Of a DNA stretch of 5,897 bases, positions 833-5,874 are shown piece by piece. Under the pieces are notes generated by a model. The model made no database searches, was not told the origin of the DNA, and worked only from the letters and a program-made list of their open reading frames with translations. Origin of the DNA: a bacterium (GTDB taxonomy: Bacteria > Patescibacteriota > WWE3 > 2-01-FULL-39-13 > JAQBTZ01); contig JAQBTZ010000039.1 in NCBI GenBank assembly GCA_027624675.1, positions 1 through 5,897 on the forward strand. Reading direction: 5' to 3'. Each line of letters starts with the position of its first letter. Position 1 is the stretch's first letter. A program made the translations under genes and the position numbers.

Positions 833-862
833 TTGGTTCAAAAAATTAAAAAGGATTGTAAT
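833..862 (+). promoter_or_regulatory. Candidate promoter for the 866-1008 RNA or leader
   Basis: TTGGTT (833-838) and TGTAAT (857-862) are separated by 18 bases. The -10 matches consensus at five of six positions, the -35 at three. The predicted transcription start, about seven bases downstream, falls at about 868-870, exactly where the first stem begins (GCTCTC at 869). That coincidence is the main support. A shared 11-mer at 821-831 lies just upstream and recurs before the typA promoter. Confidence 0.35.
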
Positions 863-873
863 GAGAAAGCTCT

Positions 874-894
874 CGCAGATTGATTTGCGTTTTT
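874..894 (+). terminator. Small intrinsic-terminator-like hairpin
   Basis: CGCAGA (874-879) can pair with TTTGCG (884-889), including one G-U pair, around a TTGA loop. Five T residues (890-894) follow directly. This could terminate transcripts leaving the DsbA-like gene 54 bases upstream. The stem is short, and its bases also form the 5' arm of the longer 869-923 stem, so the two folds are mutually exclusive. Confidence 0.35.
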
Positions 895-963
895 GATACA
901 GATATATTTAATCAATCGAGAGCGCAGGAAGTAAGGGGCACATTGTTTATTGTTGTCCAAGTG

Positions 964-992
964 TTACTTAACTTCCGGTTTCGAATTATAAT
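964..992 (+). promoter_or_regulatory. Candidate promoter for the ABC transporter gene
   Basis: A perfect TATAAT is at 987-992, 28 bases before the ATG at 1020. A weak -35 candidate, TTACTT (964-969), lies 17 bases upstream. The predicted start, near 999-1000, would give a leader of about 20 bases. The box overlaps the 3' end of the structured region, so the gene may have its own short transcript besides any long-leader transcript. Confidence 0.35.
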
Positions 993-1019
993 TCTTTTTA
1001 ATTTTTTCTTAAGTAATTT

Positions 1020-2865: not shown

Positions 2866-4686
2866 ATGAATATTAGAAATGTAGCGATAATAGCTCACGT
2901 TGACCACGGAAAGACAAGTCTAGTTGACGGACTATTGAAACAATCAAAAACCTTTCGAGAAAACGAACATTATATGTCCGATACTCTTATTATGGATTCA
3001 AATGATCAAGAAAGAGAAAGAGGCATTACCATTTTAGCTAAAAATACCACAATAAATTATAACGACTATAAAATTAATATAATCGATACTCCAGGTCACT
3101 CAGATTTTAGTGGAGAGGTAGAAAGAACGCTAAACATGGCAGAAGGTGCAATCTTAGTTATAGATGCAAAAGAAGGACCAATGCCTCAGACAAAGTATGT
3201 TTTAAAAAAAGCGCTAGAATTAAATCTTAAAATCATAGTTGTTATAAATAAAATTGATAAAAAAGATTGTGATCCTGCAAAAGCATTACATAGAACTTCG
3301 GACCTATTTTTAGATTTAGCAAAAAGTGATCATCATCTAGATTTTCCAGTTTACTATGCAATAGGTCGAGATGGAAAGTCATGGGAAAACATGCCAGAAG
3401 ATATTAATGCACCAGCAGATTTAAAACCAATATTCGAGGCAATTATTAAACACATACCAGAGCCTGTTATCTCATCGGATCAGGGGTTTCAGATGTTAGT
3501 TTCAAGCTTAGATTACGATAACTATAAAGGTAAATATGCTATCGGTAAGGTTTTTAGAGGTGAGATAAATACAGATGCTAAGGTTGCTTTGATGAAATCA
3601 AATGGTGAGATAATTTCATGTTTTGTAGAAAAAATATACACAAACCAGGGTTTAAATAGAGTAGAGATAGATAAAGGTGTAACCGGCGATATTGTTTATA
3701 TAACAGGGATAAAAGAAGCATCAATTGGAGATACAATTACAGATTTTGATAAGCAAGAGGCGTTGCCATCAATTTCAATCGAAGATCCAACTTTAAAAAT
3801 TTCAATTTCAGCAAATACTTCGCCTTTTGTAGGTAGAGAAGGTAGTTTAGTAAACGCTAGACAGATAGCAGAAAGAATAGAAAAAGAGGTACAGACTAAT
3901 ATTTCATTAAAATTCGAAAAAAATATTAATGGTGAATTTGAAGTAGCAGGTAGAGGCGAACTACATCTTTCAGTATTTTTAGAAAATTTAAGAAGAGAAG
4001 GTTATGAGATGCAAGTTAGCAAACCTCAAGTTATTCAAAAAATAGTAGATGGTGAAACTCAAGAACCATACGAAGAATTATTTGTAGAGGTTCCAACAGA
4101 ATATGCAAACTCAATAATTGGAGAGGTAGCAAAAAGAGGGGGAATGTTAACAGATCAAGCTGAAAACGATGATAAAACTACTAATATAGTATTTGAGATC
4201 TCAACCCGAGGAACATTAGGACTTAGAAACATACTACTTACTATGTCAAAAGGAAATTTAGTTTTTAATACCAGCTTTTTAGAATACAGAAAAGTAACAG
4301 GAAATATTCCAAGACTACGAAACGGAGTATTACTAGCTTCAACAGGTGGTAAAGCTACAGGGTTTGGATTAAATGTGGCACAAGGCAGGGGGATCACATA
4401 CATTGCCCCCCAGACTGAGGTATACGAAGGAATGATTATTGGTTTAAATAGCAGAACAGAAGATATTGAGATTAATGTAATAAAAGGTAAACAGTTAACC
4501 AATATTAGAGCCTCAGGAAACGATGATGCGTTAATATTAGTCCCGCCAACAATAATGGATTTAGAACAAAGCTTAAACTTTATTGAAGATGATGAATTAC
4601 TTGAAATTACCCCAAAAAATATTAGGTTTAGAAAAAAAATCTTAAACGCTGATTTAAGAATGAAGACTCGAAATAAAGAAAAATAA
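2866..4686 (+). CDS. typA: Translational GTPase TypA/BipA
   Basis: TypA/BipA is an EF-G-like GTPase that binds the ribosome and is linked to 50S assembly and stress or cold adaptation. The 606-residue protein has normal length and every domain. The GTPase motifs are AHVDHGKTS (10-18), RERGITI (50-56), DTPGH (74-78) and NKID (128-131). A beta-barrel domain II (about 205-300) and EF-G III-like (about 305-385) and V-like (about 397-475) domains follow. The BipA-specific C-terminal domain (about 485-600) is recognised by RGITYIAP, VYEGMIIG, LTNIRASG and the ELLEITP-KNIRFRKK tail. The G5 loop reads YAIGRDG (164-170) in place of the usual SA-type motif. The start MNIRNVAIIAHVDHGKT is typical of the family; no Shine-Dalgarno sequence precedes it. 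A degenerate second copy of its last codons lies at 5806-5874, beyond the next gene. Confidence 0.97.
   Translation: MNIRNVAIIAHVDHGKTSLVDGLLKQSKTFRENEHYMSDTLIMDSNDQERERGITILAKNTTINYNDYKINIIDTPGHSDFSGEVERTLNMAEGAILVIDAKEGPMPQTKYVLKKALELNLKIIVVINKIDKKDCDPAKALHRTSDLFLDLAKSDHHLDFPVYYAIGRDGKSWENMPEDINAPADLKPIFEAIIKHIPEPVISSDQGFQMLVSSLDYDNYKGKYAIGKVFRGEINTDAKVALMKSNGEIISCFVEKIYTNQGLNRVEIDKGVTGDIVYITGIKEASIGDTITDFDKQEALPSISIEDPTLKISISANTSPFVGREGSLVNARQIAERIEKEVQTNISLKFEKNINGEFEVAGRGELHLSVFLENLRREGYEMQVSKPQVIQKIVDGETQEPYEELFVEVPTEYANSIIGEVAKRGGMLTDQAENDDKTTNIVFEISTRGTLGLRNILLTMSKGNLVFNTSFLEYRKVTGNIPRLRNGVLLASTGGKATGFGLNVAQGRGITYIAPQTEVYEGMIIGLNSRTEDIEINVIKGKQLTNIRASGNDDALILVPPTIMDLEQSLNFIEDDELLEITPKNIRFRKKILNADLRMKTRNKEK
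4618..4686 (+). repeat. typA 3' end, upstream copy of an imperfect direct repeat
   Basis: The last 23 codons of intact typA (from the Asn of KNIRF to the stop) are matched by 5806-5874. From TTT (4627) to AGA (4659), 28 of 33 bases agree with 5812-5844, including an exact 12-mer, GCTGATTTAAGA, at 4648-4659 and 5833-5844. After that point mainly the encoded residues are conserved. Confidence 0.75.
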
Positions 4687-4689
4687 AAA

Positions 4690-4723
4690 TTGACAAAGTC
4701 TCAAAAGTTTATTATTCTACAAT
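4690..4723 (+). promoter_or_regulatory. Promoter for the dihydroorotate dehydrogenase-like gene
   Basis: A perfect TTGACA (4690-4695) begins four bases after the typA stop. Two -10 choices exist: TATTCT (4713-4718) at the ideal 17-base spacing but with four of six matches, and TACAAT (4718-4723) with five of six matches but a long 22-base spacing. Either way this gene seems to carry its own promoter and need not be co-transcribed with typA. Confidence 0.5.
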
Positions 4724-4745
4724 AGAAAGTTATAAATTACAGTGA

Positions 4746-4850
4746 ATAATAATCATTTATAATAATAAAGAATCCATAGAAATTAACACTTTCTATGGAC
4801 CATATTGGAATGCATCGTTTCCAAATTTACCTGAAATAGATTCAGATGTA
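4746..4850 (+). other. Probable coding N-terminus of the dihydroorotate dehydrogenase-like gene, without a canonical start
   Basis: The frame of the downstream gene stays open back to TGA at 4743-4745, adding up to 35 codons. The translation includes YNNKESIEINTFYGPYWNA and then leads directly into the conserved FLGHKLNTPFGIPA. The spacing of Y, S, E, N and GP resembles the N-terminus I recall for Patescibacteria members of this family (Y-x4-S-x-E-x-N-x3-GP). No ATG, GTG, TTG or CTG occurs in frame here; the first codons are ATA ATA ATC ATT TAT. Initiation may use ATC (4752) or ATT (4755). Alternatively, GTG 4742 in another frame would need a one-base shift before its TAA at 4760. A mutation or sequence error is also possible. 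Confidence 0.55.
4773..4799. repeat. Perfect 10-bp inverted repeat (hairpin)
   Basis: TCCATAGAAA (4773-4782) and TTTCTATGGA (4790-4799) are exact reverse complements around a seven-base TTAACAC loop. There is no T-run after it, so it is not an ordinary terminator. It lies about 50 bases after the candidate promoter, either in the 5' leader or in the first codons of the next gene. A second ATAGAAA at 4722-4728, near the predicted transcription start, could compete for the 3' arm. Confidence 0.6.
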
Positions 4851-5807
4851 TTGTTTTTGGGGCATAAGCTAAATACCCCTTTTGGAATACCTGCATGTCC
4901 ATTAACCTCTAACTCTCGATATGTAGAATTTTATTCTAAATTAGGGTTTGATTTACTTACATTTAAAACTTTTAGAAGCATAGAATGGAGAGGTTTTGAT
5001 TCCCCTAATTTATTATATGTAAACCTACCTTATCAATTAAAATTAGAGGATTTAAATACAACTTTAATTTCTAATATAAAACCTTTTTCAGATCAAGGTG
5101 TATCTATAGCAAATAGTTTTGGTGTTCACTCAACTAGACCAGAGTATTGGATAAAAGAATATGAGCTAGCAAAAAGCAGGTTAAAAAAAGGTCAATTATT
5201 AATTTTATCTCTAATGATATCTGATATAAAAGGTAAGACACAGATTGAAAATGCAATTGAGTTAGCGGGACTTGCTAATCAAACATCTGCAACTATTGTT
5301 GAGATAAATTTTGCATGTCCAAATACAGATGGGCATGGATTAATATATGAAGATATAGATTTAACCTTCAAAATATGTTACGAAATGTACAAAGTACTTG
5401 AAAATAAAAAATTATTAGTCAAAGTTGGATTTTATAAAGATCAACTAAAAATCAAAGAATTTTTATATAAAACAAAAGGTATTATATCGGGACTTTCTAG
5501 TACTAATACTTATGGTATGAAAGTGCTTAATACTCAAGGTGATCCAGCATTTGGAAATAGTAGGTTAATAGCTGGGATCTCAGGTACGGCTATAAAAAAC
5601 CTGTCAATAGGCCAAGTAAAAAATATTTTAGCTTATAAAGAGGAACTTAGTTTAGTAGATTTTATTGTAATTGGTATTGGTGGTATTATGCAACCAACAG
5701 ATGCAATGGAATATTTATCTTTAGGGGTTAATGCTGTTCAATCAGCTACAGGCACTTGGGTTAATCCATATTTAGCCTTAGAATTTAGAAATATATATTT
5801 TAGGTAA
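4851..5807 (+). CDS. pyrD: Dihydroorotate dehydrogenase-like FMN flavoprotein
   Basis: This is a TIM-barrel FMN enzyme of the dihydroorotate dehydrogenase family, expected to oxidise dihydroorotate to orotate in pyrimidine synthesis. Numbering from TTG 4851 (318 residues), visible family features are TPFGIPA (9-15), Lys39 in FKTFRS, IANSFG (86-91), EINFACPNT with the probable catalytic Cys156 (class 1 type), VKVG with Lys191, SSTNT (216-220), IAGISGTA (240-247), the phosphate-binding GIGGI (275-279) and VQSATG (296-301). There is no N-terminal membrane helix, which also fits class 1. TTG 4851 is the first conventional start in frame, but recognisable family sequence lies upstream (4746-4850), so the true protein is probably about 350 residues. 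The gene has its own TTGACA promoter and sits between two copies of the typA 3' end. No other pyrimidine gene is present, so the exact substrate is unproven. Its TAA overlaps the typA remnant. Confidence 0.8.
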   Translation: MFLGHKLNTPFGIPACPLTSNSRYVEFYSKLGFDLLTFKTFRSIEWRGFDSPNLLYVNLPYQLKLEDLNTTLISNIKPFSDQGVSIANSFGVHSTRPEYWIKEYELAKSRLKKGQLLILSLMISDIKGKTQIENAIELAGLANQTSATIVEINFACPNTDGHGLIYEDIDLTFKICYEMYKVLENKKLLVKVGFYKDQLKIKEFLYKTKGIISGLSSTNTYGMKVLNTQGDPAFGNSRLIAGISGTAIKNLSIGQVKNILAYKEELSLVDFIVIGIGGIMQPTDAMEYLSLGVNAVQSATGTWVNPYLALEFRNIYFR

Positions 5808-5874
5808 TATGTTTAGTTAAAAAACCCTAAATGCTGATTTAAGATCTAAAAGCAGAAATAGAAATCCAAGTTAG
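5806..5874 (+). pseudogene. Degenerate remnant of the typA 3' end
   Basis: In frame, this segment reads N-M-F-S-stop-K-T, then LNADLRSKSRNRNPS and a TAG. The intact typA ends NIRFRKKI, LNADLRMKTRNKEK and a TAA. One codon is missing, one Lys codon has become TAA (AAA to TAA, 5818-5820), and several differences are synonymous (TTA/CTA, AAC/AAT, CGA/AGA). Conservation of frame, residues and end position argues for true homology and not a chance AT-rich match. It is too short and too broken to be functional. The likely origin is a duplication of typA, or insertion of the dehydrogenase gene at the typA terminus from a related genome. Confidence 0.75.

What the first reader, a model, noticed from the sequence alone, without database searches (positions are those of the whole stretch)
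5806..5874. A second, decayed typA 3' end lies beyond the dehydrogenase gene
Codons 5806-5874 align with the last codons of typA (4618-4686): 28 of 33 bases match in the core, with an exact 12-mer, and both stop at nearly the same place. Synonymous changes next to one premature stop suggest an old coding sequence that decayed after it lost its 5' part. This leftover explains otherwise featureless intergenic DNA.
Basis: partly seen in the sequence, partly recalled or inferred. Interest (0 to 1): 0.75.

Follow-up and report, generated by a model that had tools for sequence, protein, structure and literature searches.

The report
Displaced typA tail beside gained gene
Directly behind a dehydrogenase gene that none of 44 searched relatives of the same class carries lies a broken copy of the last 20 or so codons of the neighbouring typA gene, most likely the original end of typA, probably pushed aside when the dehydrogenase gene was inserted there.

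Summary
Bases 5808-5844 match typA 4623-4659 at 31 of 37 positions; 0 of 5000 dinucleotide shuffles score as well. The match starts at the dehydrogenase stop codon. Read as codons it gives FS*KTLNADLRSKSRNRNPS*. In the seven residues after the shared core it matches six sister TypA tails at 5-6 of 7, the window's own TypA at 3 of 7. So it is a typA 3' end of this clade, sister-like in its last codons. The dihydroorotate-dehydrogenase-like gene between the two copies is absent from 44 of 44 other genomes held for the class; its best database relative is 54% identical, while typA and the ABC gene have sisters above 80%. Best explanation: DNA carrying the dehydrogenase gene and a short typA-like tail integrated by one crossover at the typA 3' end. 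typA took the incoming tail and stayed whole; its old tail was left downstream and decayed. This is a known kind of event. No integrase gene lies in the window, no repeat of this kind was found behind typA in 20 relatives, and the contig stops 23 bases after the remnant, so the crossover itself is inferred.

The parts
2866..4686 (+). typA (BipA) gene, intact, 606 aa
   Evidence: ORF; BipA_C and GTP_EFTU domains above Pfam cut-offs; 64.5% identical to the nearest held relative
4623..4659 (+). left copy: part of the typA tail shared with the remnant, with the 12-mer core at 4648-4659
   Evidence: 31 of 37 identical to 5808-5844
4660..4686 (+). last codons of the intact typA (MKTRNKEK and stop); inferred to have come in with the insert
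   Evidence: DNA identity to the remnant 11 of 21 here; residues differ from six of the sister tails more than the remnant's do
4687..4745 (+). spacer between typA and the dehydrogenase frame, with a promoter-like site at 4690-4718 (TTGACA, 17, TATTCT)
   Evidence: consensus scan, 9 such sites found in the region against 7.5 expected from shuffles, so weak
4746..5807 (+). dihydroorotate-dehydrogenase-like gene, the inferred insert; open frame from 4746, start codon unclear, stop 5805-5807
   Evidence: DHO_dh E 5e-19; absent from 44 of 44 other class genomes; N-terminal residues like those of homologues
5808..5874 (+). remnant: displaced, decayed typA 3' end with a premature stop at 5818-5820 and a final stop at 5872-5874
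5833..5844 (+). 12-mer core identical to typA 4648-4659; inferred neighbourhood of the crossover
   Evidence: crossover inferred

Best explanation
The stretch 5808-5874 is a decayed typA 3' end, and it is most likely the original end of this typA, displaced when DNA carrying the dehydrogenase gene was probably inserted there by a single crossover. In this model the incoming DNA held a short typA-like tail next to the dehydrogenase gene, as a circle or an equivalent. A crossover in the shared core, by homologous recombination or a site-specific recombinase, joined the resident typA to the incoming tail, so typA stayed whole, and left the resident tail directly behind the dehydrogenase stop. That leftover has no start and no 5' part, and it has since gained a premature stop. 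Shown: the two tails, the gene between them, its absence from the relatives searched, and the sister-like codons after the core. Inferred: the single crossover, the incoming tail, the order of events and the recombinase.
For: Two tails 1185 bases apart in the same orientation, 31 of 37 identical, 0 of 5000 shuffles. The remnant starts at the base after the dehydrogenase stop. The dehydrogenase gene is missing in 44 of 44 other genomes held for the class and has no relative above 54% in the protein database, while TypA has nine at 83-97% over residues 400-606 and the ABC protein seven at 82-98%. After the core the remnant matches sister tails at 5-6 of 7 (P0037-P0042) and the own TypA at 3 of 7, as expected if the remnant is the resident tail and the own tail came in. 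Tyrosine-recombinase genes exist elsewhere in the genome (4 matches over the cut-off). Homologous recombination genes and natural DNA uptake are reported for Patescibacteria (PMC12455944, passages).
Against: No integrase or other mobile gene in the window; the two tails are 84% alike, not identical, over the shared part, so no clean attachment site. No comparable repeat behind typA in 20 of 20 relatives examined. The gene's codon usage is not foreign (0.150, within the range of blocks of the neighbours, maximum 0.156). P0042 also has M at the first residue after the core, and the tail is variable in sisters, so the own tail may simply have drifted. The contig ends 23 bases past the remnant and sister DNA could not be read, so the empty site was not seen.
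Confidence: 0.6

Rival explanations
1. A second, whole or long typA copy once stood downstream (tandem duplication), and arrival of the dehydrogenase gene or a deletion removed all but its 3' end. This is closest to the first reader's picture.
For: The remnant is a true typA 3' end that lacks its 5' part and differs from the own tail as a paralogue might.
Against: Needs two events where one will do; in the own genome the DNA search found only this second tail, and the other TypA-protein matches there are far weaker (best 3.4e-32), which fits other translation factors. The remnant starts exactly at the dehydrogenase stop.
Confidence: 0.15
2. The dehydrogenase gene was inserted with a long target duplication, or the typA tail was copied behind it by a local duplication, so both tails descend from one resident tail and differ by later drift alone.
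For: Both tails are of this clade; the tail is variable among sisters, so drift of the own tail is possible.
Against: Target duplications of nearly 70 bases would be unusual (recalled); identity drops from 31 of 37 to 11 of 21 at the end of the 12-mer, which fits two origins of the last codons better. No terminal inverted repeats at the ends of the insert stood out.
Confidence: 0.15
3. Assembly artefact: a chimeric contig end joins the dehydrogenase gene to a tail from another strain.
For: The remnant lies 23 bases from the contig end, and it resembles sister tails.
Against: The premature stop and the changes in the remnant match none of the nine sister tails seen, as a copy from a living strain's typA should. 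The identical ABC, TypA and dehydrogenase proteins are each listed with a longest contig of 8701 bases, so a longer contig probably holds the typA-dehydrogenase part; whether it holds the remnant is not visible.
Confidence: 0.06
4. Chance resemblance in AT-rich DNA.
For: A genome-wide hit of nearly the same bit score exists on an unrelated contig (38.3 against 41.9 bits).
Against: 0 of 5000 shuffles in the local test, 0 of 1000 for the whole typA gene, 0 of 300 for the tail against the window without typA, and the match of the codons beyond the DNA match to sister tails (1 of 200,000 random draws reached 5 of 7, none 6 of 7).
Confidence: 0.02

Closest known systems
Integrative elements (IMEs, ICEs, genomic islands) inserted at the 3' end of a housekeeping protein gene by tyrosine recombinases
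   Same: A gene 3' end is the target, the gene stays whole because one repeat supplies its end, and a second copy of the end lies beyond the insert; direct repeats are generally 8-60 bp (PMC5704250, passages read)
   Different: Here the insert is about 1.1 kb with one gene and no recombinase gene, the repeats are 31 of 37 identical and not exact, and no target use was seen in 20 relatives
Single-crossover (Campbell-type) integration by homologous recombination (recalled)
   Same: One crossover gives a complete gene, the new DNA, and a truncated second copy of the gene
   Different: The shared stretch now seen is short; recombination at such a length was not tested here
Partial duplications (merodiploids) made by natural transformation (PMC3784515, passages read)
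   Same: Uptake of partly homologous DNA leaves a partial duplicate; one small additive insertion without flanking repeats is described there
   Different: Those are long recent duplications; here the copy is short and decayed

Membership tests
typA 3' end (homology of the remnant) | DNA match to the typA tail above chance, in the same codon register and orientation | tested here: met
   31 of 37, 0 of 5000 shuffles; codon table
typA 3' end (homology of the remnant) | Residues beyond the DNA match agree with TypA tails of the clade | tested here: met
   5-6 of 7 with P0037-P0042, 4 of 7 with P0043 and P0044, 2 of 7 with P0045
3'-end-integrated mobile element | Identical or almost identical direct repeats at both ends | tested here: inconclusive
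   12-mer exact, 31 of 37 overall; divergence could be decay
3'-end-integrated mobile element | A recombinase gene inside the element | tested here: not met
   The window's genes are DsbA-like, ABC transporter, typA and dehydrogenase; the 4 tyrosine-recombinase matches lie on contigs C10, C17, C20 and C98. I therefore do not file it as such an element
3'-end-integrated mobile element | Empty site in a relative | not testable with these tools
   no sister DNA could be read; only protein tables
Dihydroorotate dehydrogenase (PF01180) | Family profile and similarity to solved enzymes | tested here: met
   E 5e-19, above the cut-off; 5ue9 at 1e-6, 1jub at 1.4e-6, 1ep1 at 7.1e-6
Dihydroorotate dehydrogenase (PF01180) | Enzyme activity on dihydroorotate | not testable with these tools
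   -

The most novel reading that the evidence does not exclude
The typA 3' end is an attachment site for small, integrase-less gene cassettes in this candidate-phylum lineage: single metabolic genes arrive between two typA tails, moved by recombinases encoded elsewhere in the genome, and each arrival swaps the last codons of a core translation factor.
Probability: 0.1. Interest if true: 0.6.

Novelty: new member of a known kind. Interest (0 to 1): 0.33.

Why it matters
A 67-base scar would record how a gene entered a very small genome and which end of typA is the older one. If sister DNA confirms it, it is a base-level example of gene gain in a reduced lineage and of a core gene that received its last codons from incoming DNA. 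As a mechanism it adds an example to a known kind.

Tried and rejected
Integration hot spot: the typA tail has no comparable second copy downstream in 20 of 20 relatives (1.4 to 8.1 kb read behind typA). The one score above its 100 shuffles (L147, 33 against 45 in the window) is a 22-column match built on a 15-mer, without TypA-like translation, and was set aside as chance among 20 tests.

Dehydrogenase gene as a mobile cassette elsewhere: direct repeats around homologues were sought in 98 loci; 8 gave no usable plus-strand match, 3 had too little flank, and 4 of the remaining 87 (L070, L090, L100, L115) exceeded all of 60 shuffles, where one or two are expected. Looked at one by one, their arms lie 58 to 507 bases before and 86 to 491 bases behind the gene and do not abut it; those of L090 (40) and L115 (46), which score like the window's (44), are G+C-rich.

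typA next to the dehydrogenase gene elsewhere: of 102 loci with a dehydrogenase match held, five also had a TypA match at E 1e-15: four copies of this contig, and L063 with a short GTPase match over 6 kb away.

Conserved neighbours: the ABC gene was not found within the 1.5 kb or so beside typA in any of 30 relative loci, and a DsbA-like gene in 3, so wider synteny did not help to tell what used to follow typA.

Foreign composition of the dehydrogenase gene: not seen. A first version of this test used a wrong frame for that gene and is superseded.

Viral contigs: the TypA alignment found 15 loci, 14 at 43-47% and one short match at 56%, none near this lineage; the dehydrogenase protein found none. 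Three of the loci end at the typA stop; I took this as trimming at gene ends and did not pursue it.

Papers: none held all of dihydroorotate dehydrogenase, Patescibacteria and horizontal gene transfer. Searches on islands with gene attachment sites (24 papers, 12 listed), partial duplication (10 listed), typA or bipA with pseudogene or truncated copy (8 listed) and gene transfer in this phylum (10 listed) showed in their listings no displaced typA end. Of three papers passages were read, none whole.

Full report
Setting. The window is the whole of contig C34 (5897 bases) of a 725,728-base draft genome in 126 contigs, about 84% complete. Some of the roughly 60% identical TypA proteins bear names such as Patescibacteria group bacterium, Berkelbacteria or Saccharimonadales, so I take the genome as a member of Patescibacteria; this is inferred. 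The contig carries a DsbA-like gene (58-819), an ABC transporter gene (1020-2792), typA (2866-4686) and a dihydroorotate-dehydrogenase-like gene ending at 5807.

The observation. The typA tail aligns with 5808-5844 over 37 ungapped columns, 31 identical, including an exact 12-mer. None of 5000 dinucleotide-preserving shuffles of the 90-base region scored as high (44 against a maximum of 37); for the whole typA gene none of 1000 did, and for the tail against the window without typA none of 300 did. Against over-reading the score: the own-genome search gave a 38.3-bit match between the end of the dehydrogenase gene and an unrelated contig, close to the 41.9 bits of the typA match.

Limits of the homology. 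In register, 15 of 19 bases match upstream of the LNADLR codons, better than at any of 5800 other positions of the window; the 11 bases before that match at 3, and the 30 before those at 10. So the remnant begins at 5808, the base after the dehydrogenase stop. Downstream of the 12-mer, DNA identity to the window's own typA is 11 of 21, reached by 159 of 5790 other positions too.

Which typA. Nine database proteins, P0037 to P0045, are 83-97% identical to this TypA over residues 400-606 (P0038 is a fragment of 398 aa). Their tails read LNADLRSKNRNKNS (P0037, P0039, P0040), LNSDLRSKSRNKNNW (P0038), LNADLRSKSRNKN (P0041), LNADLRMKSRNKNQG (P0042), LNSGLRAKSRNKK (P0043, P0044) and LNPDLRAKSNKNK (P0045); the window's own is LNADLRMKTRNKEK. 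The remnant reads FS*KTLNADLRSKSRNRNPS*. Over 18 residues it matches P0041 at 14, P0037-P0040 and P0042 at 13, the own TypA at 11, P0043 and P0044 at 10 and P0045 at 9; no other of the 120 listed proteins exceeds 9. In the seven residues after the core it matches P0037-P0042 at 5 or 6, P0043 and P0044 at 4, the own TypA at 3 and P0045 at 2. Random codons of the local base composition reached 5 of 7 against SKSRNKN once in 200,000 draws and 6 of 7 never. This agreement lies outside the DNA match that drew attention to the place. Most of the held relatives read LDP or the like in place of LNADLR (where plus-strand loci were printed). So the remnant is a typA 3' end of this clade, and its last part keeps the form seen in sister genomes.

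The gene between the copies. No match to the dehydrogenase protein was found at E 0.001 in the 44 other genomes of the order and class, nor at 1e-10 when the class was searched as such (1 of 45, the own genome; the same genomes). In the phylum sample 18 of 378 other genomes have one at E 1e-20, the full-length ones at 31-40% identity. A scan of named genomes kept 80 of 95 loci, scattered over Roizmanbacteria, Chlamydiae, Rickettsiella, Leptospirillum, Planctomycetes and others, at 26-35% identity; records of the own or a very near genome may be left out there. In the protein database its best relative besides itself is 54% identical. As a control, the ABC protein has seven relatives at 82-98% and one at 76%, and TypA nine at 83-97%. 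The contig lengths 18,233 and 25,455 recur in both lists, so these two genes probably lie together in sisters; none of the contig lengths of the nine TypA sisters occurs in the dehydrogenase list of 35. This suggests a gain after the split from these sisters. It is an argument from tables without gene order; a sister contig could end at typA. Codon usage of the gene is not foreign.

Mechanism. One crossover between the resident typA 3' end and an incoming DNA with a short typA-like tail beside the dehydrogenase gene gives this layout: a complete typA with incoming last codons, the new gene, and the resident's old last codons without their 5' part. It accounts for the remnant abutting the new gene, for its sister-like part after the core, and for typA being whole. 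Whether a site-specific recombinase or homologous recombination did it is open: four tyrosine-recombinase matches lie on other contigs, none in the window. A review of integrative and mobilizable elements describes repeats of generally 8-60 bp and integration in 3' ends of housekeeping genes without disrupting them (PMC5704250, passages). For Patescibacteria, retained homologous recombination genes and natural DNA uptake are reported (PMC12455944, passages).

Tests of generality. No comparable repeat lies behind typA in 20 of 20 relatives (the L147 score was looked at). Repeats around dehydrogenase homologues exceeded all shuffles in 4 of 87 usable loci of 98 given, none of them abutting the gene. 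So this looks like a single event, which lowers the odds of a cassette system.

Rivals. A second whole typA, a long duplication and an assembly artefact are weighed in their own section; none is excluded. The contig end 23 bases after the remnant is the main weakness. The identical ABC, TypA and dehydrogenase proteins are each listed with a longest contig of 8701 bases, which suggests a longer assembly of this locus that I could not read.

Judgement. It is most likely an ordinary kind of event in an unusual lineage; interest is moderate to low.

Noticed in passing
window 835-1010, + strand: The stretch between the DsbA-like and ABC genes folds strongly as RNA (-54.3 kcal/mol, z -5.57, 0 of 200 shuffles): a long A+U stem closing two hairpins. 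No Rfam match at gathering score; two chance-like ones below it. Possibly an unnamed structured RNA.
   Followed up: partly
window 4742-4760: The dehydrogenase frame is open from 4746 and reads IIIIYNNKESIEINTFYGPYW, like the N-termini of homologues, but has no in-frame ATG or GTG there; the GTG at 4742 is off by one base. A rare start codon, a frameshift or a sequence error.
   Followed up: partly
window 4773-4799: A perfect 10-bp inverted repeat with a 7-base loop near the start of the dehydrogenase frame; the region as a whole does not fold unusually well (z -1.30).
   Followed up: no
whole genome G000: No match to orotidine phosphate decarboxylase (PF00215) in this 84% complete genome, while the control rings in 14 of 14 genomes, so the dehydrogenase may act outside a complete pyrimidine pathway.
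   Followed up: no
L163, L164, L167 (viral contigs): In three viral-collection contigs with a typA gene the held sequence ends at or right after the typA stop, which could be trimming or a provirus edge at the typA 3' end.
   Followed up: no
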